Assembly (NCBI GenBank): GCA_022605405.1
Contig: JABYQQ010000023.1
Coordinates: 558,001-622,000, forward strand
Reading direction: 5' to 3'
From: Earliella scabrosa
Taxonomy: Eukaryota; Basidiomycota; Agaricomycetes; Polyporales; Polyporaceae
DNA: 64,000 nt
In this document: positions 20,160-42,073 of the stretch, piece by piece
Layout of the letters: every line of letters begins with the position of its first letter
Numbering within the stretch: the stretch's first letter is position 1
Made by a program: the position numbers and the translations under genes
Notes under the pieces: generated by a model
What the model was told of the DNA's origin: nothing
The model's input: only the letters and a program-made list of their open reading frames with translations
Databases searched by the model: none

Positions 20160-20686
20160 ACGAGGATACATCTCACTGGACGACCGCAAGATCAACTTCG
20201 ATACGTCGTACTGCAGTCGCTCGCGGGGAGCCCACAGCGACGAGTGATTGCAGCGATTATCGCGTGTGGGTGTACTACTTGTATGCGTCTGGTCACTTAG
20301 CTGAAGCTACTAAATATAGTTTTGCAGCGTCAGCAGACCTATCACGCACGCATGGAGGCTCGGCCATGCACCCTCACTCAGTGGTGAAGTCGGGTCGACC
20401 GGAGCCAGGCGGGTGCTGGCGACAGCACAGCTACACGTAGCATGTCGAACGGGCCCCATCTGCTTGTCGACTTGCCCACCAGCTGCCGCTCGCTCGAGCA
20501 CAGCCCATTCCATCGCACGACGGCCACGATTCGCGACGCCCCAGAGACAACCCGCAGACCGCGCACTCGGACCGTCATCGCCGTCTGCAGTATGCTCCGT
20601 CTCCATGTCAGATCGCTCAAGATATGGCTGACAGCGAGCAAATGCACGCCAGGGAGACGCCAGCGCCGCCATCGCTCGGGACACTG
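20160..20686 (+). repeat. Segmental duplication copy A, left arm
   Basis: Aligned by eye to about 59,310-59,838 of copy B: shared words include CGATACGTCGT, GGGAGCCCAC, TTGTATGCGTCTG, ACCGGAGCCA and TGACAGCGAGC, all in the same order. The homology runs up to the transposon border at 20,686 and resumes at 42,066. Confidence 0.75.
20679..20686. repeat. Target-site duplication, left copy
   Basis: GGACACTG immediately outside the left end of the KDZ element, identical to 42,066-42,073. A preceding G is also shared, so a 9-bp duplication is possible. Confidence 0.85.
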
Positions 20687-20757
20687 CACCCCAGGCAGGG
20701 GGTCGGACCATCCGTTAGGTGGGTTCCTTGGCCATGGGAAACCTACCTGAGGGATGG
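20687..20757 (+). repeat. Left terminal inverted repeat with palindrome
   Basis: Begins CACCCCAGGCAGGG. An imperfect palindrome occupies 20,708-20,757: arms CCATCCGTTAGGTGGGTTCC and GGAAACCTACCTGAGGGATGG (read as 20+1 bases) around TTGGCCATG. The core AGGTGGGTTYC-N8/9-GGGAAACSTACCT recurs in inverted orientation at 41,986-42,030. Likely transposase-binding end structure. Confidence 0.8.
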
Positions 20758-20814
20758 TCTACCCGCGAGAGTCCTCTCCCCCAAATTCCGCAATGAGCAC
20801 AGGCGCTTTCAGCT

Positions 20815-21110
20815 GTCCCCCGTCCGCAGACGAGTGATGTACCTGTGCAGCCAGCCCGAGGAGCTCCTCGTGTGTGTTCACGATGGGCACTTACAGCCGG
20901 TCCCCCGTCTGCGGACGAGTGATGTACCTGTGCAGCCAGCCCGAAGAGCTCCCCGTGTGTGTTCACCATGGACGCTGCGTAGTATGTACCTATGGAGGGT
21001 TCATGCGCACGTTCTCAAGCACCCTCCGAGAGATGTCTAGCAGATAGCTATATGGTACGTACGCATAGAGGATCATGCACACGTCTTTTGGCACCCTCCG
21101 AGGGATGTCT
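20815..21110. repeat. Left subterminal tandem repeats (85-bp pair, 71-bp pair)
   Basis: GTCCCCCGTC(C/T)GC(A/G)GACGAGTGATGTACCTGTGCAG starts at 20,815 and again at 20,900 (85-bp period, about 71 bp matching). A second pair, GG(T/A)TCATGC(G/A)CACGT..CACCCTCCGAG(A/G)GATGTCTA, starts near 20,998 and 21,069. Such subterminal repeats are common transposase-binding arrays. Confidence 0.75.
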
Positions 21111-21580
21111 ATCATGAGTGGTTGACGGACCTCCTCACGTACTAGTACTGTATGTTAGGTCCCTCGCGTTATGTTACTATATGATATCTGTTGTCGTCAT
21201 ATCAATTCTGCAAGACCAATATCACGTCGGAAGGCCGGTAGAAATTGCAACCTAGGATGATGTGATCGGGCATAACTTGAAGTCGTCCGCTCAGTTCACG
21301 TTCTGTGTACTCGAAGTACGATGGCACACGTAGAAGATGCACAGATGATTCACGTTAGATCTGCTACTAATCGTACAGAGGTTGTCATCAGGACGGAGAG
21401 GCACAAGCTTGTGGTACACGGAGGATACAGATACGGCGGCTACAGCAACACTCCTGGGAGTCCGACGTAATACGATGCGATATACAACGGGGCGAGGGCA
21501 AAAGCGAACACTATCCTTTTACGAAACGAAAGTTCAAGACATACGGCAGAGGGCGCTCCGGGGACCGGCGTCCCGACTTC

Positions 21581-24500
21581 TCAACGACTGTCCGGCGGCG
21601 GTTCAGTTTGCGGTTGCGTCCGCGGCCCTTGTCCCTGCTGCTGCGAGGCCAGACCTGGGCCAAACTGCTGGACTTGCGGCTGGTATGGCTGCATATGGGA
21701 TGCCTGGCGGAAGGCGGGCGGCATGTGTTGTGCTGTGTAGGGAGGCATCCCGCCGGACATATGATATTGGGGGTACGTTCCCGGTGGGTTGCCGTACGGC
21801 GGCGCTGGATAGTACGGTGTACCGAGGGCGGGATATCCGTACGGGCCGGGGTATTGACCATACGGCGGAGGGTCGTACATCCTGTACGGCGCGCCTCCCG
21901 CTGCGTTTGGCTGACGTTGAAGGTCGTAAGGAGCCTGAGGCGGTGCTTGAAGGGAAAGCTGCTGCCGGACATCCTGCGGGGCCTGCAGGGGGACATCTCT
22001 GCGGACTTCCTCGTTGACGTGCTCGTGAGCCTTCTCGGGAACGTGCTGAGGGAGCTGCTGAGGGACGTGCTGAGGGAGCTGCTGAGGGACGTGCTCGCGG
22101 AGCTGCTGAGGGACCTGCTGAGGGACGTGCTCGCGGAGCTGCTGAGGGACCTGCTGAGGGACCTGCTGAGGAACCTGCTCGCGGAGCGGCTGAGGGACCT
22201 GCTCGCGGAGCTGCTGAGGGACCTGCTGAGGGACTTGCTGAGGAACCTGCTCGCGGAGCGGCTGAGGGACCTGCTCGCGGAGCTGCTGAGGGACCTGCTC
22301 GCGGACCTGCTCGCGGACCTGCCCGCGGACCTGCTGAGGGACCTGCTCGCGGAGTGGCTGAGGAACCTGCTCACGGACCTGCTGAGAGACGTGCTGGGGA
22401 ACGCGGGAGGGGACGTGCTCGCGGACATGCTGGGGCACCTCAGGCTGCTGGGAGACGTCCTTGCTGCGCTGCATCGGGCTTTCCTCGTCGACCTGCATAG
22501 GCACATCCTCTCGGACCTCCTCGATGACTCGCGGATGTGGCCTCTCGCGGAGTTGTGATGCCGCGTCCTCGCCGTCGTTCGTGCGTACGTTCTCCTCGAC
22601 CAGCGCATGTACGTCTCCACCGACCGTCGTGCGTGCGTCCTCGTGATGTTGCTCGACGACTTCCGGCGAGGCTGTCTCCTGGTGAACCCTTCGAGGATCC
22701 TTCTCCGGAGGATCGTGTGAGAGCTTCGAGGATGGCTTGCGAGGCTATGTCGTATGAGTGGTGAGCTCAAGATCATTGTCGAAAGAGCGACATACCTTAG
22801 GAACCGGCTTTGGGGGATCTTTGTTGTCGCGGACGGCGAGCTGCCCGTTCTCAGCGTCCGGTTTGTCTAGTCGGCGGCGCTTCGTCGGAAGTTGACTCCC
22901 AGAGCCTTCAGCCTTGAGATGAGGTGCAGAGTAGTATTTGAGTGAAACAAACTGGATTGGACGCTATGCTAGAGCTCACCTCTTCGTCGTCATCCTGACG
23001 GCGACTCTTCCCTGCGGCTGCCTTGCCGGATTTCGCCTCAGGCTTCGGCGCGGTCTCGGGCTCCTTGCGCTTGGTCGCGGTGGGGTGACCGGCTTTCCTG
23101 GGGTGCGTGGGAGAAGGACTATCTGCGAAAGGGTCCGCCTGGTACGCGGCCGAGTCTGACTCGTCCGAGCTCAGTTCGATCCAGTCCTTACTACGGTGCA
23201 GGGTGGGAGGAGCGACCTCCCTCCGAGGCGTGTCGTGGATGTGGACTGGCACGGAGCGGAAGCGTACAGTCGCTGTCGCACGCTGAGGGGGCTTTGAAGG
23301 ACCGGGAGTCGGCGGGGTTACCGCACGCGCTACTCCAGTAGTTCGGGTAGATGGGGCGGGGCGGGTGGTGCGGGACGACGCGCGGGCAGGGCGGCCGACG
23401 TTTGCATCCTTGTTGTCGCCGCGGTGGTCGCCCTCATTCTCGTCGTCCTCGCCGTCCCCATCGTTCTCGCTGTCACCATCGGACTCGGCGGAGCTGCGGG
23501 CCTTCTTCGTTTCGGCAGGCGATTCGTCGTCGGTAGCCTCGGAAGGGAGGCCGGCGTGGTCGATGCGGCCGTTAGCGAATTGACGCACTCCGCACGGATC
23601 TTTGGCACCGCCTGGCGGGGGAGCGCCATAGACAACCGGGTGCAAGGACTTCGTCAGGTCTGGAACACAATTAGTTCAACTGTTGGTAGCAAAGCGTGAC
23701 TTGACGGATACTCACCGGACTTGGGCCCTTGGTGCAGCACGAAGCGGAGAGGGTGCGGGTTCTCTCGGTCAACGATAGCTTGAACTATCGCAGTCAACGC
23801 CGCGCCACCTAAGCCCTGGAAACCCTTCGACTTTTTCTTCTTGGTCTCCTTGGTCGGATCAGGTAGCGTGAGCGGGTAGGGGAGACCGTGGAGTTGGATG
23901 CCGAGATTTGCGAGGACCGTCGTCAGCTGCTTGCAGGGGAAATTGGACGAGTCCCACAATGGCTTAGCACAGTCTCCGAGCATTCCTATCGAGGAATGGG
24001 GATGATGAGTGAGATATTGAGACAGTCGCAAGTGGTAACTCACTAGCCAATGTGCGGAGATGAGTGATGATAAACTTCGACCGTCCGGCTGCGGTCGGAG
24101 GATCGATTTCTTCGGGAAGCACGTATGTCGCGACGGTATCGGTAGCCGGCTGTACGGTCTTTGACGCTCCTGCATGAGCCTTCGCAGCGGATGTAGCGCC
24201 AGTCTTGGTCATTGGCTGGCCTAGGTTCGCCGCAGTGACCCGCGCATATCTCTCCTCTGCGACCTCGGCGTTGTCCTCGTACAGCATATCGCCTAGTTCC
24301 TTATCGACGTTGTCGCTGCAGGTCGGCGATGAAAACATCAGCAGTGGTCCGGAGCGCAACGCGATAGCAGTAGCACCCACTAGATATGCGTCTTGAATCC
24401 TGCTAGCACGGCGTTGTCCTGGACACGGAGGCGATTAGGGAAAAACTTTACAATTCCTTGTCAGATTGCGCATGTAACGTCTGATATATGCAGACGTACG

Positions 24501-27500
24501 TCTGCTGCATTGGGTGTAGTGAACACCTTCGCCAGTCCGGTGTCGGAGTTGACGATATTGCCAGTGATAATCAAGGCCGCGCTGAAACTGTTCAGGATCT
24601 CGGCTTCCTCAAGCTATATGCGGTCAGGGTCAGCTATGCCGACGACGAAGATGCAGCGTCCGGCGTACTCACAATATGCGTGATCTTCCGGAACAACCCC
24701 GCAAACTCCTTCTTCCGGTTGCCGACCGTTGTGACGCTCGTGTTGTGGAGGTCTTCGTGCAGGCGAAACTTCTCCAGGATTTTCTTCGCGTCCTTGCCGT
24801 ACGCTCCCTTGAACTCCCTGTAGCAGACGCTGCGCAGGTTCTTGTCGGTTGTGACATCTGTCGCATATGAGACTCGTAAGCTTTATATCAGTGAATGGCT
24901 CGTCGCCGGAACTCACTTTCGCGAGCGTCTGCACAATCGGTGGCAGTAAGTATGACAGAAAACAACGTGACACGACCGACACGATACGCACCATCCGAAA
25001 GCCTCCCAATCTCTGCTAAGGTGTTCTTCTTGTAGAACCGAAGGTATAGATTCCACATATTCTTGATTAGGTGCTTACGCGAACGCGCTGCCGACCACTG
25101 ATCGAACACTTGGCCGACAGCAAGGTTTGTGGCCGCAGCGACCTTCTTCGCGATCTCGATGACCTCCTGGAAGCCCTGCTGAAGTAGACGACGATTCTCG
25201 TTGGAGACTCGCCCAGGTGCCCTCGGACCCTTGTCCTCCCATTCGTCATCGGAGAAATCGAAGATATTGTCATCGTTGTCGAAGATGTCGCCGAACAAGT
25301 CGAAGTCCTCCTCGCCGTCAGGGTCCGGGTCCGTGTCCTGCGCCTATGATCAAGCTATGTTAGCAAGAAACGCGCTGGTTGGCATGATTTGCGAACATAC
25401 ACGAGCCTTTCCCTTGTTAGCCGACGTGTTTGACTGCGTCCGAGCGTCCAAAGGTTCCTCCGGGGTCTTGTTAGATTTGGTCCTTGAGGACGTCGCAGCC
25501 GCGGGGCCGGGGATGTCAGAGGTAGCCGTCGGAAGGTCTTCGGGCCCCTCCCGCGGAACGTCGACAAGTAGGTCCACGCCACGGCGCACGGAGGAGTGCT
25601 TGGGATGGTGCGTGGAGAGGTCTGCGAGCGGTGCCGAGGGAGGATGTGCCGGAGGATGTCCGAGGGGATGCGAGGATGGGTGTGCAGGAGGCTCCGCAGT
25701 AGGGCGCGCTGGAGGTTTCGCGGGAGGCTCCGCGGGCGGGCGCACAGGCGGGTGCGCAGGCGGGTGTGCGCGCGGGTGCGCGCGGGGGTCGGGAGGAGGG
25801 TGAGCGCGCGGGTTTCCGAGGGTCTCTGGTGGAGGGCCGGCGAGTGGGTCGGCGAGTGGGTCGGCGAGAGGGTCCATGGGAGGGTGCTCGAGAGCATGTT
25901 CGGGAGGATGCTCGGGAGGGTGCTGGGGAGGGTGCTGGGGAGGGTGCTGGGGAGGGTGCTGGGGAGGGTGCTGGGGAGGGTGCTGGGGAGGGTACTCGGG
26001 AGGGTGCTGGGGAGGGTGCTGAAGGAGACGGGAGGAGCCATCAGCTCTGTACGTCTGGCGGTCGTTGTACCCGCCGTGCAGTAGATCGAGGCTCTGGTGG
26101 TGAGGATTGACGTGAGGTTGATATGAGGACCCGCTCCCGCTTCCGTGCACAGCGAAGTCGTTGGAGAAGTGGTAAGGATCGTAACTGAAGGCGCCGGTGA
26201 TATTGGGCTGCGCGTGCGCGAAATTGTGGGATCCTGGTTGGAGGGTACCCCACGACGACTGCAATCCGTTGAAATCTGGATGGGAAAAGGCATATCAGTG
26301 CGATCGTCAACGTACCAGCTGCAGTCACGCTTACCTTGCTGCCAATGTCCGTGAAAGCCCCCATTTTGATCGACATCCATGGGCTCCCAGCCTTGAGCTC
26401 GGGCCACCCGTTGAACCTCTCGAGCCAGCATCTCCGCGCCATTCCCTCCGAAATCTGAATGATAGGGGTTGGGAGGCTGCGCGAAGAGCTGCTGGTGTGG
26501 GACATTGTTTTGATGCTGGCTCCGGCCGGGATGAACGTCATCCGGTACGGAGGGGGCGGCGAGGAGATTTCCGGATGTAGACGATGTGGGCCTGCCCGCG
26601 CCGTTGCCGGGAAGGTCTATGATGGGCTGGCGAGCCGGAGGTGGGTCTTCGGAGAGCTGTTGAGGCGCGTCGGGGCGGACATCGGGGTTGCTGACCGGCT
26701 GGGGGGCATCGGAGGGGACGTAGGGAGGACGGGTTGCACTTGCGAAGACCTCGCGAGGGACCTGCCCGCCATGGGCGCTCCGTCCAGCAGCAGCCTGGCG
26801 CTCCGCCTCGTCGCTCATGGCGATGTCGTCGGGCACGTCCCGCAGGACATGATGTGGAGGAAGGCTACTGCGGTCTTGGGCTGCAGTGTTCCCTCCGACA
26901 TTCCCGACGCCCTCCGGAGGCAGGTCAAAGGGGACATCGTCGAGGGCGACTGCCTTTCCCTTGCCCTTGTCCCGTCGGGGTACGTGGGCGCCGACGTCTG
27001 CTGGTTCCGAGGCAAGACGCTCCTGGCGCCTGAGAGACACGGCCTCGACATTCATGACGACCTCCCCGGGTACCTCTATGGGTAGGTCCACGGGAGCGTC
27101 GTGGACCTTCTCGCCGGGGTCTACACCGAGGTCCCCACTCAGATGACCAGCGTCTCCTCTCGGAGTGTGATACGGGCGGGGCGCGGAGGACTCGGATTGC
27201 ACGTCAGTGCGCTGACGATTACCGACATATATCGCGGACACAACCTGCACGGACGCTTCGACATTGCCGAGCTCAGCCTCCCCAGCCTGTATCCCTTTAC
27301 CACCTTCAGCGGGCACGGCGTTGGTGGGCGTAGACTCGCGCAGATCCGCCGCGGCAGGCGCGCGCTCCGAAGCTACGATCGCGAACCGTTAGAGACCGAC
27401 GAGGATGTAATGTAAGAGTGGGACTACACTCACGGCTTCGGCTACCTCCCACTGGGCTCGTTGGACGAGGGACTCTTGATGGAGCTGCGGTGGCCGTGTT

Positions 27501-28360
27501 TCCTGACCGTTGACTCTGCTATTAACCTCTGTCTTCATGTACATAGACAGACGGACTTACCGATCTGATTTTGCGTAGCTTCAGCCTTCGTACGAGAGCG
27601 GGTTGTGCGTGTATGGGTATAGGGTTTGCCCGTCGAGGCTTGCGCCTTGGTACTTTTGGGTTTCTTCGACGCTGCTGCGCCCTTGGCGACGACTGGCGTG
27701 TCAGCAGGAGGCGGCGGAGGTGAAGCCTCGGTTTGCTGCAAGGTCGACGCGTCCGTTGCGAGGGGTAAGGCCATCACGCCGGTAGACGTGCTCGACGCGG
27801 GTGGGGCAGCGATCGACACGCTCTGGTTGGCGGGAGATGCGGCATGGGCAGGGACAGCGACGGACGCGTCGGCGATGGGCGTGGACGCGTCGAGACGGGA
27901 CGCTGAGCCGGAAACCGTTGGCGGTACGACCGTCGCGTCGTGCGCACTTGCAGACGCGCTGGGTGCATACGCAGATGTGTCGGAGGCGGTCGTCGACGTG
28001 TTGTGGGACTCCTGAGACGCGTCGGACTCGCTGCTTGACTGTTTCTTCCCAGCTATAGAACAAAGATGAGTCCTTCGCCGCAAGGTCGGCTGAAGTAGCG
28101 TGTCTGTGCATACCTTTGGCTTTTGAATGTTTCACGGAGGCGTTGGACGGCGGCGGCCGGGTTTGTGTCCGCGCGCGCATCGACTTGCGGGTGGGGGGAG
28201 GGCACTCGGCAGGGATGACATGTCGCAACGGTTTGGGGGTGGGGGTGCCCGATGGCTCACGTACAGACGCGTCCATTGACGCGTCCGTTGACGCGTCCAT
28301 CGACGCGTTTTTGCTCTTCTCCGGCGGTGGCTGGTGGTCATCAGTGTCAGCACTCATCAC
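21581..28360 (-). CDS. KDZ-element low-complexity protein with a conserved helical domain
   Basis: A 15-exon model (28360-28114, 28052-27561, 27502-27434, 27372-26335, 26275-25401, 25343-24992, a 12-nt micro-exon 24927-24916, 24857-24673, 24613-24500, 24445-24381, 24315-24044, 23985-23716, 23659-22980, 22912-22796, 22744-21581) stays in frame for 1,983 aa. The N-terminal third is Ser/Thr/Pro/Ala-rich with DAS repeats. Then comes a HPPQ tract, an acidic stretch, and the only globular-looking part: GRVSNENRRLLQQGFQEVIE through SRKHLIKNMWNLYLRFYKKN to CYREFKGAYGKDAKKILEKF and CAKPLWDSSNFPCKQLTTVL. I recall such domains in anonymous genes next to KDZ elements. After basic NLS-like stretches (TKRRRLDK) follows a (L/V)REQVPQQ repeat and a Pro/Tyr/Gly/Gln-rich, prion-like tail. 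Function unknown; a nuclear, condensate-type role is speculation. Confidence 0.65.
22025..22440 (-). repeat. Coding repeat LREQVPQQ
   Basis: In-frame repeat inside exon 15 of the low-complexity gene, reading mixtures of VPQQLREQ, VPQPLREQ and VPQQVPQQ, with HVPQQ variants near the end. Units are multiples of 12-30 bp; length variation between strains is expected. Confidence 0.85.
25885..26030 (-). repeat. Coding repeat HPPQ
   Basis: A 12-bp unit (GTGCTGGGGAGG on the plus strand) repeated about a dozen times, encoding HPPQ with HPPE variants inside exon 5 of the low-complexity gene. Confidence 0.9.
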
Positions 28361-28811
28361 AGTACGTCTGGACGCGTACCTTGGACATGGGAGGACGTGG
28401 ATGCTTGTGGCTGAGGATGCTGAGGTGCTGGAGGCGACGGTGGTGGTGGTGGTGGTGGTGGTGGAAGGAAGGATAGCGAGAGTGAAGAGGGTAGGAGCTG
28501 TCGGGGAGTGGGACGATTATCGGAATCGCCACACGCGTGGTGAACGCTTGGAAGCTGTTGTAATGGCAGCTTTTGCTCTACTGCGATGTGAGCGACGGCG
28601 GCGATATCTTTCTAGGGTAAATGAGAGATTAAATACGGCGAGAGGAGCTCTGTAGGAACCTCCTACCTGCCCAACATAGTAAGTACGCGGCATAAACGCA
28701 TTGCCATGACGTTGCGACGTGACGTTGACTCGAGCCTGGTGGGGATTATGACTGTTCAGCACTACGCCGTTTTTGTTATACGAGAGACATACATTTATGA
28801 GGAGCAGTAGT
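28361..28811. other. Intergenic region with GGT microsatellite
   Basis: Upstream of the low-complexity gene and downstream of the GPIGE gene. Contains an uninterrupted run of GGT/TGG triplets at about 28,439-28,465. No gene is supported; the plus frame 28,116-28,655 is a shadow. Confidence 0.6.
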
Positions 28812-30063
28812 CTAAGAACCATCGCCCGACTCTACTTCTTCGCTGTGCTCATGCCACACATACTGAAACAGTTCGCCGCGCGCGCCGATGATTGCGTTGT
28901 AGTTGACCCAATAGGGCGATCGCGATGCCACGAGCGACTCCGGCTCGATCGCAAGCAGATGATCCGCGCGGTGCAAGGAAAACAACTCATCGTCAAACTG
29001 AGTGAGTCGGCTCCTTGCTTTCTCACGTTCCCACTCAAGCCTTGCGCGCGCATCCTCACTGGGGACGGGGCTCGGAGACACCATGCCATGGGGGCAGGTG
29101 AACATGGTCGGGTAGTGAGGCTGCGGGGCCGTCATTTGCGCCGGTGGCAATGGGAGTTCCTCATCGGACCTCTCGCCTATCGGTTCGGTGTCGTCGGAGT
29201 CGAATACGTCTATCTCCCCCACCGGACCAATGGGAGAAGAGAAGGTGTCGTCGGGTCCATGCTCTCCTATCGGACCAATGAGAGGAGGGTCAGCACCAGG
29301 CCGGAGACGTCGGCAGCATCAGTCTCACCTCCTGAGCCTCCGGGAGACACAAACCGAACAACGCTGGCTACGTACTCCTCGTCGACAGAGTCTGCCGGCT
29401 GCTGTTGTCCCTCCCGATTTTTGTTCTTGGGTTCGGAGCTCCGTTCGTCAGAACTGTCCCACTCCCCGATAGGACCGCTGTCGGACGAATCATCGCGCGG
29501 AGAAGTCCCGCTGCCGGCAGCCCTGTCGGCATTTGTGGCGCCGACGGGATCCGGGGTACAGCCTGAGAGAGGCTGCTGAGTAGGTCCGAAGACGTCCGTC
29601 GGGTTAGGGCCGCCTGCAGGAGCGTCGGCGATAGACGCCATGCTAAGCTGAGCTGAGCCCAAAGGTGAAGACGAGCGTGCCTCTCCTATAGGCAGACCTG
29701 GGGAGAGCGGGCCTGGGGTTGGGGAGCGGACGCGGAGTCGATGTGCGCTCCGGTCTGTATTCTCACATATCAGACTTTTGGCGGGTTCTGCCCTGCCGCA
29801 CAACTGCTTACCTTCTTCCGAGGATGGCGAAGGGTCTCTCGGACGCTTTCCAATCATAGCAGGGCCTGAGGGAGATGCGAAGGATATTAGTACATCGTCT
29901 CGAATGAGTTCTTCGCAAGTACCTACAACTTGAATCTTGGTGAGATGTTAGAGCAACCGGAACGCCGGACAGCCTCTTGTACGCGCGTCCACGTGGCGTA
30001 GGCGCCCGTGATGCCGCCACACTTCAGCTCGTACTCTGCGTCAGCGTCATCGTGGGCCCCCAT
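28812..30063 (-). CDS. KDZ-element protein with GPIGE repeats
   Basis: Supported exons: about 29,867-29,814 (IGKRPRDPSPSSEE), then in phase to GPLSPGLPIGEARSSS down to about 29,329, then 29,263-28,812. The last two joins, GTAAGC at 29,813 and GTGAGA near 29,328, are phase-correct. The motif (S/G)PIG(E/P) recurs (GLPIGEA, SGPIGEW, SSPIGPVGE, TEPIGER). The C-terminal part, DARARLEWEREKARSRLTQF, is helical and possibly a coiled coil. A first exon from an ATG at 30,063 (MGAHDDADAEYELKCGG, then ITGAYATWTRVQEAVRR) vaguely resembles the viroplasmin/RNase HI N-terminal fold, but its splice to the next exon is not resolved. No function can be assigned. Confidence 0.45.
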
Positions 30064-33000: not shown

Positions 33001-33097
33001 TCTCGCATCCATGACGCTTGCTCAGTCGACGTCTACACGTACGCATTCCCTGGTTGGTCATGGGGTTCTGGAAGTAGATAGAGCCCAAGTCAAGTAG
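30092..33097 (+). CDS. Cysteine-cluster, Ala-Pro linker, coiled-coil protein
   Basis: Four exons in frame: 30092-30524, 30576-30928, 30980-31694 and 31746-33097 (950 aa). The N-terminal 145 residues form a compact predicted domain (WNIQFTQTCKALGKVLKQYH, then FIIGCIWEFNNHYYGKTAFV). Exon 3 opens with a cysteine cluster: CGCEGCRKTGAVC, then VCKQCRKIKIKCSFM. The second half (CxxCRKIKxKC) is very like a fungal Zn2Cys6 half-site. A Ser/Pro-rich linker and an (Ala-Pro)n tract follow. The last 300 residues have long Leu/Glu/Arg heptads (LVHQLRELYGTIQ, VQEELQRVREEQQDIIDRLD) and probably dimerise. It lies 185 bp upstream of the TET/JBP gene on the same strand. A DNA-binding accessory factor of the element is a reasonable inference. 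Confidence 0.7.
31781..31897 (+). repeat. Ala-Pro codon repeat
   Basis: About 19 GC(T/C)-CC(C/T) dicodons encoding an uninterrupted (AP)n linker within exon 4 of the cysteine-cluster gene. All three frames are open, which produces SR- and PL-rich shadow frames. Confidence 0.9.
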
Positions 33098-33282
33098 TAC
33101 CATGTATGTCGTTTCCGAATGCAGTCGCTCATGCTCGGCAGTGACAGTGAATGATGCGACGCGTGCGCCATCAAGGGTCACCGGAGGCAAAATCAAGACC
33201 AACCGCCCGTGTTGCTTTGCTGGCATCCCCTGCTCTGAGCTGCGTCATTCGGCTTTCATTGCGCGACTTCCCTCACAAAACT
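33098..33282. promoter_or_regulatory. Short spacer upstream of the TET/JBP gene
   Basis: 185 bp between the stop of the coiled-coil gene and the chosen ATG at 33,283. An earlier in-frame ATG at 33,151 exists, but the peptide it would add looks non-coding. Confidence 0.4.
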
Positions 33283-34622
33283 ATGGCGGATCCAGTATAC
33301 GACATCACCATGGCTGAACGTCGTGCAGAAACTGCATCCTTCATCGTCTCCTTGTATAAAGTGTACAAGCAAGAGATCGCCGCCGGTCATGCCGCGGGTA
33401 CAACTAGCCCCCAGCTACCCAGCCCCCCAGTTCATATCAGCACTGTTCTTCGCGATGAGTGCTATGGTGTAGCCAAGATCCTCGCTGAGGCGGCAAGCAA
33501 CATCCGTGAGTACCTTCCAGCCTGTCAGTTCTCCACAACGCTGACAGCAGCTTTCACAGATACGCTGACCTGGGATGCCGCCCACTACGCCGCGTCCCTT
33601 CAGAGATCGACGGTCGGCAATGTAGAGTATGAGAATACTCTGCTGCGACAGTTTCCGCCCCTCGGACCCATTGCAGTGGCCATGGACGACACAAAACCGT
33701 TACCGGTGCTACCTGACCCGTGCGTTTTCTGCGATCGTGTTGGGCGACAGGTCTCCTGGAGCCTTCCGTCCGTCATGCCTGAACGACACCAGGTAAGTTG
33801 TTCTGTCTTGCAGGCTGCTTGGTAGCTGACCCAGTGGTTAGGCTATCGCTCTCGACGCCGTCCGTGCACTTCAAGCTCGTCTCACGCATGACCGCGCGGA
33901 GCAGGATGAGCCCACGAGCCGCAAATGGCGCACAGCCGAGTGCTACTTCAGCCCGGGCGGGAGTCTCAAGCCAGGTCAAGTCTTTCTTGGTCCGGCGTGG
34001 TTCGAACAGGGACATCTGGTAGGTCGCATGTAGGGTTGGATCGCTGTTCTGCCGCTGATAGATAGGATAGCCACCGAGGTATCCACCCATCGTCCTGTCA
34101 GCCACGAAAACTCCGGAGGCTTCGGCATGGATGACAGGCATGCAGGAAACCTGCCAAATTCTTGACGGGATCTTGGCCGTTACCCATCCTGCTCTCTATG
34201 CAGCTGGTCGGCGATTGATGCAGCGGCTCTATCAAAATGACGCCCGCGCGCGTGCCGTCGTTGAACAGTGGCCGTCGGTCTATCACGCGGTGCACATCAT
34301 TGTCAACCGCGAGACGATCTACCACCGCGATGTCAACGGACTTCCAGGATGGTACGACATGCTCTTGTCTGTCGGAGATTATGGAGAAGAGGCAGTGTTC
34401 TCTATGAGATCTCTTGGCGTCTGTGTTCCCTACGACAGCGGCAGCATTGTTATGGTCTGCTCCCGGATTGTGTTGCACGCTGTCCCACCCGTTCCAAATA
34501 CTCGGGTCTGTCTTGCGTGGCTTATGAGAGACATGGTCTTTGATTATCACAGTGTACATGGCGTTGAATGGTCCTATGTAGGCTCCGAGCTCTACGACGA
34601 TCCCGAGAACGCTCTCTTGTGA
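33283..34622 (+). CDS. TET/JBP-family 2-oxoglutarate/Fe(II) dioxygenase
   Basis: Exons 33283-33505, 33560-33792, 33842-34018 and 34146-34622; the first intron (54 nt) could also be retained in frame. Fungal TET/JBP enzymes oxidise 5-methylcytosine in DNA using 2-oxoglutarate, Fe(II) and O2. Visible landmarks: the iron-binding HxD in NRETIYHRDVNGLPGWYDML, the glycine-bearing SVGDYGEEAVFS, the distal His in IVLHAV, and the 2-oxoglutarate-binding Arg in TRVCLAWLMRDM. The upstream half (RKWRTAECYFSPGG, FLGPAWFEQGHL) also fits the KDZ-linked subfamily. A block of about 120 bp at 34,019-34,136 encodes family-like sequence, but on the opposite strand. Skipping it as an intron gives a 369-aa protein with all catalytic residues; activity without the missing 40 residues is uncertain. 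Confidence 0.8.
34019..34136 (-). other. Inverted coding block inside the TET/JBP gene
   Basis: Read on the minus strand the block gives PVIHAEASGVFVADRTMGGY followed by LGGYPIYQRQNSDPTLHATY. This is what the family has between FEQGHL and the MQETCQ helix of the plus-strand exons on either side. On the plus strand the same bases hold stops. Breakpoints are blurred by short palindromic matches (CATCTG at 34,013; ATGACAGGCATG at 34,131). The inversion turned ACCTAC into a GTAGGT donor at 34,019, and GCATGCAG at 34,138-34,145 serves as acceptor, in phase 0. Confidence 0.75.
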
Positions 34623-35398
34623 TAGATGTCTACTGAGGTTCTATGTAGTAGTCTGGCTTGCTCCGGAATAGAATGGAGCCATTTTTCCTGCACGTTGTCT
34701 TTTGACCTGATTTGTCCGAGCTTGATACCAGTGCTTCGGCGACCTACAGCCCCTCCCGAAGTTCGCGTCATGGTAGTCATGACCCAAGCGCCTGCCACCA
34801 CTTGTCAGACACGACTGAGACGGATTCCAACTTCCGAAGGACGGCGGAGCTTTTCGGAGCAAATTCAAACTAAAACTAAATGATTTTTGCAATGCAAGAG
34901 CAACCTCCGAAGTATCTGCCCCTGGGATTGCAGGCTCGAGGATGAGATTACCTTGGCCCGTTGCCTCAACCTGAACGTCCCCGGCGCTCCTGTCCGGCGC
35001 TCCGCCCCTTGTGCTGCTGACTGGGCCGAAGCTCATCGGAAATTCAAACAGTGGGTGTATAAGTGTGTAGAATTCAGCTGTGGTATGTAAAATGCTTATT
35101 AAGATAGTTTTTGCACTGTTCCGGACCAGAGAGCCATGCACGGAGTCTAGTGCAGTCGTGTCTTGTTCGATTTGGATGGAGACGCCAGCCGGAGGCAGCA
35201 TTATCCTCCACAGCTGTATGGAAACATTGTATACGCATCTCGGAGAACTTTTGAGACTTGTTCTAGATAACGCTATGCATATTACATTTGCTCCGGCAGC
35301 GTTTGAGGCTAGTTTCGAGCGGGGAGGGCTACTCCCGTCTTGTCCGATAGCAAAGGGAGCATCGCCCACAGGCGCCGACGCGCACTCCGCCTACCATC
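34623..35398. other. Spacer with long open frames on both strands
   Basis: The minus strand is open for 242 codons (34,641-35,369), and the plus strand for pieces at 34,626-34,880 and 35,080-35,484. Neither shows a domain or convincing splice sites. It may hold 5' exons of the plus gene at 35,399, an extra minus gene, or only regulatory DNA. Confidence 0.35.
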
Positions 35399-36209
35399 AT
35401 GACTGGCACCAGACCGCCAACGACCATCGCCATGTCGCTCATCGGGTCCCCCGAGCAGACTATATTTGTACAACATCCTGCTGAACCACTACCTCAGGTG
35501 CAATGGTCGGCCCGCCTTGAAATCCTCCTCAGCGTCTGGCGTATTGCGCAGGCATTCAGGGCCCTCCCACAGAGCCCTACGGAGTTGATATGGCGGCGGT
35601 GGGGGCACGGTATCGCGCGGGAGCTGGTACGTCAACGCTCTCTTTCCCCATCGCACCCTCGTCGACTCATGATCATGAACCGCTCATCGACAGTGGATCG
35701 CGATCTCAGCTACGGGTCTCGACAGCTGCACGACCGTAGCGTTGAGGGAGCCTCAAACCCGCCGATGCGGCGCTCTCGTTCTTCTGCTCCGGCACCTGGA
35801 GTGGCGAGCCAACAGGAGCCTGAAGTTTGACGCTAGCACATTCAATGTCGGAGGGTTTTTTGAAAAGATCGGTAACCTGGCGGACAATCCAGATCTCGCC
35901 TCCATGGATCTGGTCTGGAGCCATGCAAAGTGGTGGACGTGGCCTGACGCCGGTCCTAACGAAGGGACGCCTGTGTGGTGGGTTGATCCTAGCGCGTTTG
36001 TGGTGAGTACCTCCCTACGTCAAGTTCGAGCAGCTTCCCGACACTTGCAGCCTCATCCAATGCCCCTCCATTCGTCGGACCTTCAAGGCTTCCGCTATCA
36101 TGCCACCGCCGTCAGATCCGAGCTATCGGACATCTTGGAGGGGCATAAGGTCGCAGTAGAGCAGTTGAACACGCGTATCAGAGACCTTGAGCACGAGTTG
36201 TTCGAGTAA
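35399..36209 (+). CDS. Small KDZ-element protein of unknown function
   Basis: Three phase-0 exons, 35399-35626, 35694-36002 and 36051-36209, give 231 aa. Recognisable pieces: PQVQWSARLEILLSVWRIAQ, FDASTFNVGGFFEKIGNLAD, ASMDLVWSHAKWWTWPDAGP, and a C-terminal helix HKVAVEQLNTRIRDLEHELF that looks like a short coiled coil. It ends 148 bp from the 3' end of the convergent KDZ-Ulp1 gene. Not recognised as a known domain; the Trp-rich middle suggests a folded core. Intact frames and location inside the element suggest it is element cargo. Confidence 0.6.
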
Positions 36210-36357
36210 GCATCGTTGTCCTTGCGGGCGTTGATCTAGATGGTATTGAGAAGCGTCTGAGAGCACGGGATGGTGTCATGTAAAGTCTGTACGTTCGGAA
36301 TACATTTGCCCGCGTATGTATACTTCTAGTCCGAGTACAAGCGTAGCGACGGATAGA

Positions 36358-39300
36358 TCATGAAAGCGTCAAAGGCTGTGTCTTCGTCAACAATAGTGTC
36401 AGGAGACGAGAGCGGAACCGTCCAATCTCGGTCTCCGATATTGAAACGCATCGATAACCCCGCAGCAGGGCCGCGATGCACGCAAGAACCCAAACACCAC
36501 AATCGTAGCCATTCGTTTGTAGTCGCTTCTTCTACGACCGGCGGAAAATTATAAGCATGGCAACCATACCAATCAGTTCGGAGAACTCACCACCAGCCGG
36601 TGCGCGGACCAGTCGCCATCGAGGTTCGGGACGCGTTTGCGTCGTTCCGCCGCCAGACGTAGAAGGCGATGCACTAGAGCAAACACGGTCTAGACCACGA
36701 TGAGCCACTTCAACGTGACAGAGCCTGAGGGTCACCGGCCACCGCTTACCTGGACATCCACCTCCCAAGAGGACTCGTTAGCGAAGCTGTCGAAGTAAGC
36801 GATCTGACGCTCCTTGAGATACACTACGGCCAACTCCCAGTGATGCGCCCGCGGCTGGTGGATGGGGATGATCCAGACGTCGCTCTCCCAATACCGAGTT
36901 CGGTGGTTGACACGCCAGACTCCGTCATCGAGAGACTGGCCGTCGCGCTGCTGGGCCATAGCAAAGCTAGAGATGATTGTCGGATGCCCTCCGTCGACGT
37001 TGGTCATGCCGAAATGGAGGGCGAGAAGTTGGGCGCATCCATTGACGCAGTCGTCGTTGAGCCATGCGCAAGGGTCTCGGAGCCGAGCTATGTCCTCCGG
37101 TGAGAATGTGATCTCTCTACAGGTTGGATCGGGGTGCGGTAGCACAAGGGTCGTGTTTGGAGTCGTCGCGATGGGCCGAGGGAGCTTCGGGAGCGCTTGC
37201 GAGCAATCCATGGTCGCTCCATACTAAGAATACCGCACATCAGCACTGCGGTCAGCCGGTATATTCATCCGCTTACCGGATCCGCGTCAACGGCAAGCTG
37301 CAAGACTCGAACTAACATTGCGGCGTCGGGCTGAAATGAAGTATGAGTGTCGGAAGTAGACTCGTCGGAGAAGACGCCTGCAGAGCCTGGCCTGGGAAAC
37401 CCGATGGAGCTCCACGGGGAGGTCTGCAGCGAGGTACGTGATTGAGAGAAGCATGGTACCCCGGGGTTCGTGTTTGAACCGACGACTTCCGGAGATGCGC
37501 GTTCCACGATCGGAAAAGCCACATCTGTGAGCAGGTCGTCCTCGTCCCCGTCCTCGTCCTCCGCCTCGTCGGCGTCGTTGCCGACCAACTGGACAATGGT
37601 GTCTTGAGCAAGCACGGAGTCCGGGTCGCCGTAGTAATCTTCAAGCTCGGAGTGGTCTTCATTTTCGTGAGTGAAGGTCAGGTGGACCCATGTCAGCGGC
37701 TGGGGCTGAGAAGCACCCGAAAGGTGCTGAGCGATGCGCGCGGCCTCCTCGGTCTGCGACGTGAAGCGTAGCTCCGATGCCATAGGCGTCCGCCAGCGTG
37801 CCTGAAGCAACAGCAGCTCCGCTTTTCGCTGCTGTAGAAGGAATCCGATTGGCGAGTCTGGTTAAATTCAGCGGTTAGGCAGCGTGCATGATCCGAATGA
37901 CAAGGACGTTTGACTCACAGGATGAAGTGCGGAGGGCAAGCTCCACTGCAGCGAGCTCGTTGCCGTACCATCTACACAGATTGTCTGCTTCATCGCCTAG
38001 TCGTTTCCGCTCCTCAAGACATCGGTCTTTCGAGAGCATCGCGCGAATCCCACGGCGCACGTCAGGGTCCTCCAGCCAGCGAGGCGTCGGTGAGGTCAGA
38101 GGGGTCACCCACACATCTGTGAGAAGGCTGGGATCGTTCCGGAGGGCTCCGAGTTCCACCGGGAGATGCTTCGGTAAGGGAATCTTCCAGCTCTTCTTGT
38201 GTTGGCGCTTCAACGTGTCACAGTACGTGTTGAACTTCCGAATCGCCGTGAGCAGGGCGGGAGTCCGCTTTGAGATGGCCTTTCGGGTCTGCTGATGTAA
38301 TTTGGTCCCTACAACCAAAGTCGGTATTATTAGCCGTAGCCACCTGCGAGAACTGATACCTACCCAATGGCTGGTCTCGGCCACCGGCAGCCCGGTCGAG
38401 CTTATCCCACTCAAAGAAGCTTCCAATAGCGCGCTTCCGGATGTTGATCTTCAAGTCGCGGGCCATGATGAGCGTTTGGACAAAGGGTAGGGAAAGTCCC
38501 CGCACTTCGGGGAATTCTTCCGGAACGTTCAAGGAGGCGTAGAGTGCTTCAACTTGCTCGATCGTGCGCGCATGTGATTGTTGTAGGCTCCTGAGAAAAT
38601 GATGGGCCTGCGGGTTCGTATTTTCGACCCGGATGTGAGTCTCCATCGTGTTGACATATTTCTTGATGTCGTCCAGCTCAGCTTGTAGATTTAGGACGCT
38701 GTCCAGTTCTTTCTTCAAGCGTGCAGGTGCATCTGATATACCGCGATTAGTGTGCAACTTGAATGTAGTTAAGACACGTTGCGCCGCTTACGGTTCCTCA
38801 CGGAAAGCTGCGCGGCGCGCTGTGATTGCCACTGTTGTCGAAGTTCTGCGATTGGAATCTGAAGCTCGTTCAGTTCTTGATCGGCCTTGGTTGTGCGAGC
38901 TTCAACCCCGTTCTTCAGGCGAGATCGGAGCCAGTTACCCAAGTCTTCTCGGGCAGTTGCATTGACGGAATCGGCATGACGGTCTAGATACCAGATTCGA
39001 CGCGAACGCTAGATGCAATTCGGATCAGCGAGGGTGCGGCATGACTAGGATAGTACTCACACCGGACGTTCTGGTGATGCCTATGAGCTTGCGGAACTTG
39101 GACCAAACCCTTTCGGTTCCCTCCCCTTCTGTGAGACCGAGCCCTTCCCTGAGTCGGGGGTTGTATACGAGTTGACAGGACCACTGGTGACCGTAGGCGT
39201 GCATCACCGAAGTCGCAAATACGAGCCGCTCAACGGTGGATTGAGGGAGAATGTCGTACTGGGAGAAAGTCATACATCACTCATCTCCGACGGCATAGCA

Positions 39301-41769
39301 AGTGGAGGGAAGTGGACTTACCAAATGCAGACTGCGGTCAAGGACACAGCCAATGTCATAGAACACGGCGACGGTTGCTGTGCGAGGAAGGAGAGACATG
39401 AGATGTTCCACCAGAGCCACACCGTATTTCTGCTGCTCGCCCGGAGTATCGACGTTGGCTAGGAAGAGCACGATGTCATGGCGGCACACCAGAGCCATAA
39501 GGCCAGTGTCGTCGAACTTGACGCCGTGAGTCTTCGCTTTCTGCTCGTCCGCCGCTTCGAAGGACTTCTCACATTCGTCCAAGGCACCGTCTGGGACTTG
39601 GCTGGTATACGCACGCGGCGTACTCTTCCGGGCCTGGTCAATACGAGCTCCGACGGCGTCCACGGCGTCCTTGGAAATGAAGTACTTCGGTTCGTGGAAC
39701 CAGGGACTATCCCCTGCCGCAACGTTGTGACGCTGACCGAATGTCGCGTCGATTGCAACATGAACATCGCCGCCGTCCCTGCATCACAACAGAATGTCAG
39801 CAGAGCAACCATATGTCTGTCAATCGCCTACTTGTTGAAGTCGCGTCCAAATCTTGTGCCGCCGAAACATGCCGGACACCGTTTCTGCAAGAGCCGGTCA
39901 CAGCTACCTGCTCTGAGTCCAGCAATGTTCGGTTCGGGTATCCGGGGCTCTGAACTTGTCGGAGCGTGCGTACCCGCGGGTCGTGGAGGATTGGACAAGG
40001 GGCCAGTAGAGTGCTCTCTCGGACCTCCCTCACGATGTCCAACGGCACGCTCTCTCGGACCTCCTGCGGGGTGCGCGCTTGGACCCTCCCTCGGAGGTCC
40101 CATGGGATGTGCCTGCGTACCCTCCTGCGGAGGTCCCATGGGATGTCCCTGCACACCCTCCTGCGGAGGTCCCACCGAATATCCCTGCGCACCCTCCTGC
40201 GGACGTCCTGCAGAGGGTTCCAAGGGACTCTCGCCTCCCCGGAGACCTCTCCCCGGACGTTCCACCAGAGGTCTGTGGGGAGATTCGGCGGTCCCTCCTC
40301 GACGTGCCTGCGGTCCCTCCTGCGGAGGTCCTGCAGAGGGTCCCCAGGAACCCTCCCAAGTACCTACAGCAGGACGACCGTGAGTACCTACCGTCATCGG
40401 CCCTATCGGTCGTTCCGTTGTAGCTCCTCCGGAAGTTGGGTGTTCGGGTGCGCCCTGGTGTGCTTCTAGAACATGTCGGTTAGCAGCGGGAATACTTGTG
40501 AACTATGCAACGAACACAGGCAAGTCTTACCTGGGCGTTGCAACATTTCCTCAGATCCCGAACCTTTCGCGGCCTTGAACGACTTGATCGTGTGCAAACA
40601 ATCGTCGACGGCGGCCTCCACGAGGGAATCGACTCGGTTTCGGAGACAGTCATACCATTGTATGGCGTAACCTATTCCGCGGCGGAACGGGTCTTGAACA
40701 GGCTCTCCCTAGTGCAGAAAGATTGCCATGCGCAAGGACTCAGAACACACAAAGGCTCCGATCAGAAAGAATATGACTCGGACTTACCTTTTCGTTCAGG
40801 ACAGGGAAGCCGCGTCTCTGGTACAAAGTCTTGAGTGCTCCTGCAAGCGCAGTCACCGCGTCTGCCGACCGTTCGAATAGTGCGAAGTAAAAATCGAGGA
40901 GGTCTATCGAGACAGCAACGCGAGGCTGGGAGGGCGCTGTGGGGAATAGACCGCTCTTCACAAGCGTATGCGGTAGAGGCGAGCAGGAGCATGACTGTAC
41001 ATCGAACGTCGCTAGATCTAGAGAGAACGTCAATGGTAGGTGGAAGCGTCGACGAAAACGGCCTACAGTCAAAATAGAGACAGGTGACACTTGTCACCTC
41101 TAGCATGCACGACTCCGACTGAACGCAGAGACCGGGGTCGATTTTGCCAGAGCTCCCGCCGATCCGCCTTTGAGCTGCTTGTAGATATGTAAGATAGTTC
41201 GGAAGCAGGGTCGGAATCAGCGCGAGCCAGGCGGCGTATAGGCGATGCGCCCCCTCATCCGGATGGAGTCGTCGGGATCGTTGTGAAGCGGCCGTGTTCG
41301 CTGTAAACTCGACATGGTTGTCTTGCATCATCGCATCATCCACCGAAGGCGTGGTGTCGGGGATGTCCGAGTCGAGGATTGGTTCGCTCGTCATTTCCGA
41401 GTGGGTGAGGTCGTCCGCCGCGTCGTGAAGGGAGCTCGGATCCGAGTCTAACGGACCCGGGGCTGGTGCACCGGGAGGATGGAGAAGACCCGCGATTTCT
41501 TGAGCAAGTCGGTCTCTCAGAACGAGTGCGTTGGTTCGGGTGACAACTTCTGCATTCTTCCGAGGGGCGCGGCGTCCTTGAGGAGTGGTGAAATGCTGGC
41601 CGACAGGTTGCTCATCGCGACGTTGGGGTCGTCGCGGGGGCGTTTGGGGAGGCGGTAGCACATACCCAGAGTCCATACCGGACAGTAAGACGATGGTGGA
41701 GGTTTCAAGGCTGCAGAGGCCCCCGGCGGACGTCGGTGAAAGAAGCGCGCGGGCTCCGCGTGTTTTCAA
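36358..41769 (-). CDS. KDZ transposase fused to a Ulp1-type cysteine protease
   Basis: Thirteen exons join in frame: from ATG 41,676 (or 41,769) to 41067, then 41017-40788, 40708-40531, 40465-39832, 39778-39322, 39258-39061, 39008-38792, 38732-38364, 38308-37919, 37857-37277, 37223-36750, 36689-36591 and 36531-36358 (1,536 aa from 41,676). Parts: a Pro-rich N-terminus; a CxC-type cluster (SCMLEVTSVTC..CSCSPLPH); FRRGIGYAIQWYD; a CPACFGG knuckle; the RNase H-like core with candidate acidic residues in VAIDATFGQRH, VFYDIGCVLDRS and GEGTERVWS; GHQWSCQLVYNPRLREGLGL; a long helical region; and a C48 Ulp1 domain with LNDDCVNGCAQLL, catalytic HHWELAVVYL, YFDSFA and QTNGYDCGVWVLACI (His, Asp, Gln, Cys all present). 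No stop or frameshift. It should catalyse element transposition; the protease may process SUMO-like proteins. Confidence 0.85.
39990..40400 (-). repeat. GPPQEG repeat within the transposase
   Basis: Exon 4 of the transposase (40465-39832) contains tandem copies of about 45-48 bp, encoding GPPQEG(T/V/A)Q(A/G)HPMGPP-like strings. They lie between the CxC/RRG region and the CPACFGG knuckle. The nucleotide repeat is clearest at 40,080-40,210 (GAGGTCCCATGGGATGT words). Confidence 0.85.
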
Positions 41770-41985
41770 GTGTCATGTAGGATGAGTGATATGTTCGGTC
41801 ATATGATTGCCAAATACTACAAGGGGGAGCATCTCGTCTGAGGAGAGGTTCTCGCAGACGTCCCAGAGAGGATCCTATCGAATCTGAGGTCGCCAGTGAC
41901 GTCCCGGAGAGCGTCCAAGTGGTATATTACCAAAAGGGGGACGCTATTATTAGGAAGACAGCCTGGGAACGGGTACATTGGGGGT
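41770..41985. other. Right subterminal region
   Basis: Non-coding DNA between the transposase start and the right inverted end. Contains short repeats built on GACGTCCC(A/G)GAGAG (about 41,857 and 41,898). It probably holds the transposase promoter and end-binding sites. Confidence 0.5.
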
Positions 41986-42065
41986 CCTCTAAGGTACGTT
42001 TCCCACCTACAACGAAACCCACCTTAGAGGCTGGTCGTAGTCCTGGTCAGGCCCTGCCCTAGGTG
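41986..42065 (-). repeat. Right terminal inverted repeat with palindrome
   Basis: Reverse complement begins CACCTAGGGCAGGG and, further in, carries the palindrome 41,986-42,030 with perfect 10-bp arms CCTCTAAGGT/ACCTTAGAGG and inner GTTTC/GAAAC. The core matches the left-end palindrome in inverted orientation. Confidence 0.8.
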
Positions 42066-42073
42066 GGACACTG
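42066..42073. repeat. Target-site duplication, right copy
   Basis: GGACACTG, identical to 20,679-20,686. The following TTCGGCT continues the paralogous sequence seen unbroken at 59,839. Confidence 0.85.

What the first reader, a model, noticed from the sequence alone, without database searches (positions are those of the whole stretch)
20679..42073. Complete 21.4-kb KDZ transposon with exact ends, target duplication and paralogous empty sites
Both ends, an 8-bp (or 9-bp) direct repeat GGACACTG, and three uninterrupted paralogues of the target (near 59,831, 52,106 and 56,545) can be read in the same window. This fixes the element borders to the base. It packages six genes, including transposase-Ulp1 and TET/JBP, so the unit that moves is defined rather than inferred.
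Basis: partly seen in the sequence, partly recalled or inferred. Interest (0 to 1): 0.9.

Follow-up and report, generated by a model that had tools for sequence, protein, structure and literature searches.

The report
Six-gene KDZ transposon carrying TET
A wood-rot fungus carries a 21,379-base transposon whose two ends are fixed to the base and which holds six genes in an order kept by its sister copies, among them its transposase, an enzyme predicted to oxidise methylated DNA and a likely DNA-binding protein; relatives of that enzyme and of two companion genes also sit beside a very different transposase, so such elements have likely traded a kit that would protect them from silencing.

Summary
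Window 20,687-42,065 is a complete 21,379-bp KDZ transposon between two copies of GGACACTG; a paralogous segment (59,325-60,843) reads through the same point without it. The genome (its proteins are named Earliella scabrosa, Polyporales) holds 11 further delimited insertions with related ends; 11 of the 12 have a perfect 8-bp target duplication, C34 does not. All 10 full-length copies keep the gene order E-B-Z-TET-G-transposase (B undetected in two). Against three copies all six genes show purifying selection (dN/dS 0.09-0.39). The transposase is KDZ-Ulp1, TET keeps its catalytic residues, Z has a conserved Zn2Cys6-like motif. The 8-bp duplication and short inverted ends differ from Kyakuja, the only TET-bearing transposon reported from Polyporales (Kojima 2025). 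New: relatives of Z, TET and G also surround a second, very different KDZ transposase (11 loci). Window TET is 60% identical to one of these, but the transposases only 25% over 126 residues; the three genes were probably exchanged between lineages (tree test borderline). Demethylation and its targeting are inferred; present activity is not shown.

The parts
20687..42065 (.). whole element, 21,379 bp
   Evidence: homology of other copies ends at these bases; target duplication and comparison of 12 insertions
20679..20686 (.). left copy of the target duplication GGACACTG
42066..42073 (.). right copy of the target duplication GGACACTG
20687..20700 (+). left terminal repeat CACCCCAGGCAGGG
   Evidence: 11 of 14 bases as in the right end
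42052..42065 (-). right terminal repeat, CACCTAGGGCAGGG read inward
20735..20741 (+). left subterminal motif TGGGAAA, base 49 of the element; possible transposase site (inferred)
   Evidence: TGGGRA at base 49 in 10 of 12 left ends
41999..42005 (-). right subterminal motif TGGGAAA, base 61 from the end; possible transposase site (inferred)
   Evidence: base 61 in 6, base 50 in 5 of 12 right ends
36358..41676 (-). transposase, 13 exons, 1,536 aa: CxC1 (below cut-off), KDZ, Ulp1-type peptidase
   Evidence: models; Pfam; dN/dS 0.19-0.21
33283..34622 (+). TET/JBP dioxygenase gene, 3 exons, 412 aa
   Evidence: models; Pfam; CcTet match; dN/dS 0.09-0.10
30092..33097 (+). gene Z, 4 exons, 950 aa, Zn2Cys6-like cysteine motif in exon 3
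   Evidence: dN/dS 0.28-0.31
35399..36209 (+). gene G, 2 exons, 247 aa, function unknown, accompanies TET in both KDZ lineages
   Evidence: dN/dS 0.20-0.27
28812..29857 (-). gene B, 2 exons, 327 aa, function unknown
   Evidence: dN/dS 0.25-0.35 on 205-314 of 328 codons
22908..27388 (-). gene E, about 8 exons, function unknown; its 5' end is not settled
   Evidence: dN/dS 0.26-0.39 on 873-1,078 of 1,352 codons
59325..60843 (+). paralogue of the joined flanks without the element; target equivalent GGATTCTG at 59,831-59,838

Best explanation
This is a complete 21,379-bp KDZ DNA transposon, bounded by short inverted repeats and an 8-bp target duplication and carrying six genes in an order kept by its sister copies, that is predicted to move by cut-and-paste with its own KDZ-Ulp1 transposase while its TET/JBP protein, likely guided by the Zn2Cys6-like protein Z, would oxidise methylcytosine and so keep the element from being silenced. 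Shown by sequence: ends, duplication, one empty paralogue, eleven further delimited insertions, fixed gene order, purifying selection on six genes, catalytic residues of TET, the cysteine motif of Z, and relatives of Z, TET and G around a second KDZ transposase. Inferred: cut-and-paste movement, recognition of the subterminal TGGGAAA motif by the transposase, 5mC oxidation, targeting by Z, help from G, and exchange of the Z-TET-G set between the two KDZ lineages. My confidence is about 0.97 for the element and its borders, 0.6 for the exchange, and 0.4 for targeting of TET by Z; the figure below is for the account as a whole.
For: Borders. Target duplications in 11 of 12 insertions. Empty paralogue. 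KDZ (177.9 bits, cut-off 26.6) and Peptidase_C48 (44.3, cut-off 20.7) in one open spliced frame. TET/JBP over cut-off; CcTet match with HxD and the Gly331/Asp337 equivalents. Gene order in 10 of 10 full-length copies (B in 8 of 10). dN/dS 0.09-0.39 with bootstrap intervals below 0.5. Zn2Cys6-like motif in 11 of 11 sequences tested; the weak profile and fold matches include Leu3 and LAC9. Exchange.
Against: C34 has both ends and full length but no target duplication. Aligned copies show 0-2 in-frame stops per gene, and nothing here shows activity today. CpG is not depleted in these elements or in neighbouring transposons (o/e 1.04-1.25), so the sequence shows no mutational trace of methylation from which TET would protect. 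The match of Z to Zn2Cys6 proteins is significant in no database (Pfam below cut-off; PDB profile E 0.44; fold E 1.6). The tree that keeps all second-lineage TETs together is only marginally rejected (AU p 0.049, KH and SH p 0.065), and CcTet is a distant outgroup. The first-stage genome search scores only the best candidates, so counts are lower bounds.
Confidence: 0.6

Rival explanations
1. A small KDZ transposon picked up the other genes recently and only at this locus, so that most of the 21 kb is passing cargo.
For: The element is far longer than transposase plus TET would need; B was not detected in C16 and C21.
Against: E, Z, TET, G and transposase stand in the same order and relative orientation in 10 of 10 full-length copies, and all six genes are under purifying selection between copies.
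Confidence: 0.03
2. The similarity of Z, TET and G between the two KDZ lineages comes from a common ancestor that already had them, and the transposases merely diverged faster; no exchange took place.
For: In the TET trees the first-family sequences can stay together (support 61; split of first from second lineage 0.344); the test against this is only borderline (AU p 0.049; KH and SH p 0.065).
Against: Within the first family transposase and TET diverge about alike, 59-83% against 61-81%; yet window and the C24 second-lineage locus share 59.6% in TET and 25% over only 126 residues in transposase, while C24 and the C14 nested element share 48% in transposase and 35% in TET.
Confidence: 0.35
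3. The copies are old relics that no longer move, and the TET genes survive as host genes or by chance.
For: The three copies aligned in full are only 77-79% identical to the window copy where aligned; nested insertions in C14 and C6; some stops.
Against: All six spliced models of the window copy are open, its target duplication is perfect, and selection on the transposase is strong (dN/dS 0.19-0.21), which a relic would not show over the divergence measured.
Confidence: 0.35
4. The TET/JBP protein does something other than demethylation for silencing escape, for example 6mA oxidation or base hypermodification.
For: Kojima 2025 reports 6mA activity of CcTET and keeps other activities open; the residues linked to it are conserved here.
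Against: CcTET, the closest protein with a solved structure, is described as oxidising 5mC as well.
Confidence: 0.25
5. An ordinary segmental duplication of the host genome with a chance octamer at both ends.
For: The octamer alone is expected about three times in the window, and the site lies in a duplicated region.
Against: 11 of 12 insertions have an 8-bp duplication exactly at the same element ends, 11 different octamers.
Confidence: 0.01

Closest known systems
TET+ Kyakuja transposons of Agaricomycetes (Kojima 2025, PMC12730594, main text read)
   Same: KDZ transposon with an AG-type TET/JBP gene; CA..TG termini; reported from Polyporales
   Different: 8-bp instead of 7-bp target duplication; short terminal repeats where Kyakuja is said to have none; Ulp1 domain in the transposase; Z, G, E and B are not mentioned there (main text; supplements not seen)
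Zisupton transposons, including TET+ Zisupton of Auriculariales and Agaricales (Kojima 2025; passages of PMC9297572)
   Same: 8-bp target duplication, terminal inverted repeats, long many-exon transposase with KDZ domain
CxC2-KDZ elements of the same genome (C14 nested, C24, C9)
   Same: Carry relatives of Z, TET and G; order Z-TET-KDZ-G
   Different: Transposase only about 25% identical over 126 residues; 7-bp duplication in the one insertion read
CcTET of Coprinopsis cinerea (PDB 7vpn, 7w5p, 8jkk)
   Same: 2OG-Fe(II) oxygenase with HxD, Gly331 and Asp337 equivalents
   Different: About 30% identity to the window TET over the trimmed catalytic region
Starship giant transposons of Pezizomycotina (listing only)
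   Same: Large multi-gene fungal transposons
   Different: KDZ transposase; fixed gene set; basidiomycete host
Plant Vandal elements with an anti-silencing protein (as cited in Kojima 2025)
   Same: A transposon-encoded protein that counters silencing of its own family is the model proposed here
   Different: Unrelated proteins; sequence-specific action is only inferred here

Membership tests
KDZ DNA transposons | KDZ transposase domain (PF18758) over the curated cut-off | tested here: met
   177.9 bits, cut-off 26.6, profile 3-217 of 217
KDZ DNA transposons | cysteine cluster before the KDZ domain | tested here: inconclusive
   CxC1 24.6 bits, cut-off 26.9; CxC1 is annotated in relatives such as P0006 and P0022
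Kyakuja (as in Kojima 2025) | 7-bp target duplication | tested here: not met
   8 bp in 11 of 12 insertions, none in the twelfth
Kyakuja (as in Kojima 2025) | no terminal inverted repeats | tested here: not met
   11 of 14 outermost bases match, plus a subterminal motif at both ends
Kyakuja (as in Kojima 2025) | 5'-CA..TG-3' termini | tested here: met
   CACC..GGTG
Zisupton (as in Kojima 2025) | 8-bp target duplication | tested here: met
   11 of 12 insertions
Zisupton (as in Kojima 2025) | terminal inverted repeats | tested here: met
   short and imperfect
Zisupton or Kyakuja | placement of the transposase in a tree with named references | not testable with these tools
AG-type TET/JBP dioxygenases | Tet_JBP domain, HxD..H triad, Asp337 and Gly331 equivalents | tested here: met
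   59.6 bits, cut-off 34.9; alignment to CcTet; HxD and downstream His in the window protein
Zn2Cys6 zinc-cluster proteins (gene Z) | C-x2-C-x6-C-x5-16-C-x2-C-x6-8-C (consensus recalled) | tested here: met
   11 of 11 sequences; six invariant cysteines
Zn2Cys6 zinc-cluster proteins (gene Z) | match to Zn_clus (PF00172) over cut-off | tested here: not met
   16.2 bits, cut-off 21, exon 3 frame; not listed for the first 4 exons at E 0.01; so called Zn2Cys6-like, not a member
Starship | tyrosine-recombinase captain gene (recalled) | tested here: not met
   no such domain among the 20 open frames and 4 models of the element scanned; the rest of the element was not scanned

The most novel reading that the evidence does not exclude
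KDZ transposons of mushrooms carry a three-gene anti-silencing kit - a TET oxygenase, a Zn2Cys6 protein that aims it, and a helper (G) - and two transposon lineages with different transposases, ends and duplication lengths have traded this kit as a unit, so that the kit rather than the transposase is the lasting evolutionary individual.
Probability: 0.35. Interest if true: 0.82.

Novelty: new variant of a known kind. Interest (0 to 1): 0.6.

Why it matters

Tried and rejected
Two further paralogous empty sites (56.5 and 52.1 kb): one too weak, one short of the junction, not counted. Giant cargo elements: the 57.7-kb and 56.2-kb copies are elements of about 21 kb with insertions, a second TET-bearing KDZ element in C14 and three insertions in C6; C26 (42.4 kb) probably likewise, judged by coordinates only; C11 (29.5 kb) was not read. 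Two more frames, 21,584-22,744 and 27,535-28,516 (minus strand), are repetitive or poorly conserved and were left out of the six. Subterminal palindromes: they fold better than shuffles in both window ends, both C34 ends and the right end of C14 (z -1.9 to -2.6), but not in the left ends of C14 (z -0.7) and C11 (z 0.4), so not a family feature; the right end of C11 was given in the wrong orientation and is not counted. CpG depletion: none, also not in a nested LTR-containing insertion, so no test of TET. Structure of gene G exon 2: mean pLDDT 56, not used. Relatives of gene E in the protein collection: none at E 0.001 among 7,994 scored candidates. Iyer 2014 is not in the library. TET trees: of 29 loci over the cut-off (39 matches) 24 loci were given; one gave no match and three gave only 24 aligned residues and were dropped, leaving 20. 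Left ends were found with an exact pattern, so their uniformity is partly by construction; the right ends of C16, C17, C21 and C24 were found afterwards, by their duplication and terminal motif. The output was cut; its figures were replaced by those.
Full report
WHAT IS THERE. The window is contig C23:558,001-622,000 of a 51.7-Mb genome of 48 contigs. The element runs from 20,687 to 42,065 (21,379 bp). It starts CACCCCAGGCAGGG and, read inward from the other end, CACCTAGGGCAGGG (11 of 14 alike), between two copies of GGACACTG. The octamer alone would mean nothing; its weight comes from its position and from the other copies.

EMPTY SITE. Joining 1 kb of flank on either side, with one octamer, gives a single alignment to 59,325-60,843 (77%). 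Base by base the paralogue reads CATCGCCCGGGATTCTGTTCGGCTTAGCC where the joined flanks read CATCGCTCGGGACACTGTTCGGCTCAGCC, without a gap. It belongs to a duplicated segment (42,065-45,591 against 59,830-63,417, 79%) beside a NACHT/NPHP3_N-type gene (45,144-46,838, minus strand).

OTHER INSERTIONS. Genome searches with each end and with the terminal motif led to eleven more insertions with both ends: C34 51,633-73,155 (21.5 kb), C14 247,893-305,555 (57.7), C6 1,990,261-1,934,098 (56.2, reverse), C26 336,203-378,640 (42.4), C11 448,244-477,781 (29.5), C17 608,025-629,102 (21.1), C16 195,871-174,689 (21.2, reverse), C21 49,803-26,306 (23.5, reverse), C24 542,817-566,798 (24.0), and two short ones, C6 2,206,405-2,212,246 (5.8) and C9 816,215-811,072 (5.1, reverse). 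With the window copy that is 12; 11 have a perfect 8-bp duplication, all 11 different; C34 has none. Counts are lower bounds, as the tool states. A further set of the six genes on C1 (5,173-5,221 kb) has no located ends, and single ends at C23:537,746 and C23:237,655 belong to incomplete copies. The motif TGGGRA lies at base 49 of 10 of 12 left ends (base 50 in one, absent in C9) and at base 50 (5) or 61 (6) of 12 right ends (absent in C26). The two right-hand distances differ by 11 bases, about one helical turn, which would suit a transposase binding site (inference).

GENES. Exon models were built from open frames conserved between copies and canonical introns. Six genes result: E(-), B(-), Z(+), TET(+), G(+), transposase(-); all six spliced models are open. 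The transposase (1,536 aa) has KDZ, Ulp1 and a sub-threshold CxC1 domain. Its family is large: 477 relatives among 7,994 scored candidates, of which 120 were listed, the named ones from mushroom-forming fungi. TET matches CcTet and keeps HxD and the Gly331 and Asp337 equivalents that Kojima 2025 discusses and the downstream His. Against C34, C14 and C6 all six genes have dN/dS between 0.09 (TET) and 0.39 (E against C6), with bootstrap intervals below 0.5; for B and E only part of the codons could be aligned. In-frame stops per gene and copy are 0 to 2, so not every copy need be functional. In all 10 full-length copies E, Z, TET, G and transposase are present in one order and relative orientation; B was found in 8 of 10, not in C16 and C21. 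Four of the ten were read in full (window, C34, C14, C6); the others are known by these matches and by their ends.

GENE Z. Its exon 3 holds C-x2-C-x6-C-x9-C-x2-C-x6-C, found in 11 of 11 sequences tested, five of them from the second KDZ lineage; the six cysteines are invariant. The pattern is that of fungal Zn2Cys6 clusters (consensus recalled). A profile search of solved structures lists Leu3 and LAC9 first (E 0.44 and 0.51) and an MS2 coat protein third (E 1.1), none significant; the predicted model of 93 residues (mean pLDDT 65) finds only three Leu3 chains, the best at E 1.6 and rmsd 1.8 over 32 columns. Pfam Zn_clus stays below its cut-off. I read Z as a likely DNA-binding protein.

EXCHANGE. 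Within the first family transposase and TET diverge about alike (window against C26 83/81%, C17 78/69%, C11 80/69%, C16 76/68%, C24 70/61%, C21 59/64%; best local alignments of unequal length). Between the window and the C24 second-lineage locus TET is 59.6% identical, but the transposases align only over 126 residues at 25%. Conversely C24 and the C14 nested element share transposases at 48% over 665 residues (C9 and C14 nested 50.5% over 764) but TETs at only 35%. Z behaves alike: the window protein is 46% and 47% identical (two stretches) to the second-lineage C24 locus and 42% to the first-family C24 element. G is less clear (34% and 47% against 41%). With CcTet as outgroup, the first family and the C24/C9/C11/C4 TETs form a clade with support 96; within it the first family has support 61. 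A tree that keeps all second-lineage TETs together is rejected only marginally (AU p 0.049; KH and SH p 0.065). I take exchange of the module as probable (about 0.6). Kojima 2025 saw no such transfer among AG-type TETs.

WHAT IT WORKS LIKE, AND WHAT IT IS. By ends and duplication it resembles Zisupton, not Kyakuja; by transposase placement I could not decide for want of named references. Kojima 2025 (outline, parts 1-5 of 7 of the text and the legends read, passages; supplements and the end of the reference list not seen) reports only TET-bearing Kyakuja from Polyporales. Searches for Zisupton/Kyakuja/Dileera, Earliella scabrosa with transposon, KDZ with transposase, Ulp1 and Basidiomycota, giant transposons in basidiomycetes, KDZ transpos*, and TET with KDZ and Zn2Cys6 listed no account of this element or of a Zn2Cys6 partner of TET; long lists were cut (40 of 68, 15 of 286, 10 of 12). 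Of other papers I saw listings, or passages only: PMC9297572 and PMC7641404, which reports that intact KDZ transposons of Pleurotus ostreatus are preceded by CxC2.

LIMITS. One genome, no strain comparison, no expression or methylation data. The 5' end of E is unsettled. CpG o/e is 1.0-1.25 in all stretches counted, so composition does not show that methylation harms these elements.

Noticed in passing
C14:267,169-303,343 (loci L025-L029): A TET-bearing CxC2-KDZ element of about 36.2 kb with a 7-bp duplication sits in a transposase intron of a TET-bearing element of the first family; C26 (TET at 351,233, KDZ at 348,205) looks like a second such nesting.
   Followed up: partly
C26:345-359 kb, C35:40-53 kb, C37:3-17 kb: Three loci give identical scores for TET, KDZ, Z and G matches, which suggests near-identical, recently moved copies of a second-lineage element; their sequences were not compared.
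   Followed up: no
C6:1,947-1,968 kb (loci L031-L033): The insertion of 20.6 kb holds a pair of 1,005-bp direct repeats that are 100% identical (a recent LTR element) and a second pair of about 580 bp at 99.7% inside it.
   Followed up: partly
C6:1,938-1,945 kb (loci L030, L031): The insertion of 6.7 kb begins CATCAGC and ends GCTGATG, as PlavakaB termini are described in Kojima 2025.
   Followed up: no
window 19,107-19,854: A tandem array with a period of about 80 bp, up to 95% alike between copies, stands some 830 bp left of the element.
   Followed up: no
window 42,065-46,838 and 59,830-63,417: A duplicated segment beside a NACHT/NPHP3_N-type gene; the element inserted at its edge.
   Followed up: partly
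window 39,832-40,465 (minus strand): An exon of the transposase holds an imperfect repeat rich in G, P and E (EGPQ/GGPRE-like units) between the cysteine-cluster and KDZ parts; it aligns poorly between copies.
   Followed up: no
P0001 (contig of the length of C26): A deposited gene model joins a TET fragment to the second exon of gene G, so deposited models may hide the catalytic end of TET.
   Followed up: no
C34:51,633-73,155 (loci L019-L021): Full-length copy with both ends but no target duplication (CGAGCGTT against TGTCTTCC); recombination or a later rearrangement is possible.
   Followed up: no
C23:237,655 and C23:537,746: Incomplete relatives on the same contig: a left end with gene E of the C16 type, and a right end with a KDZ fragment some 20 kb left of the window.
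   Followed up: no
C13:1,519 kb, C28:49 kb, C24:647 kb, C35:282 kb: TET/JBP matches over the cut-off outside both gene arrangements; three of the four were compared and aligned over only 24 residues with the window TET, perhaps another TET type.
   Followed up: no
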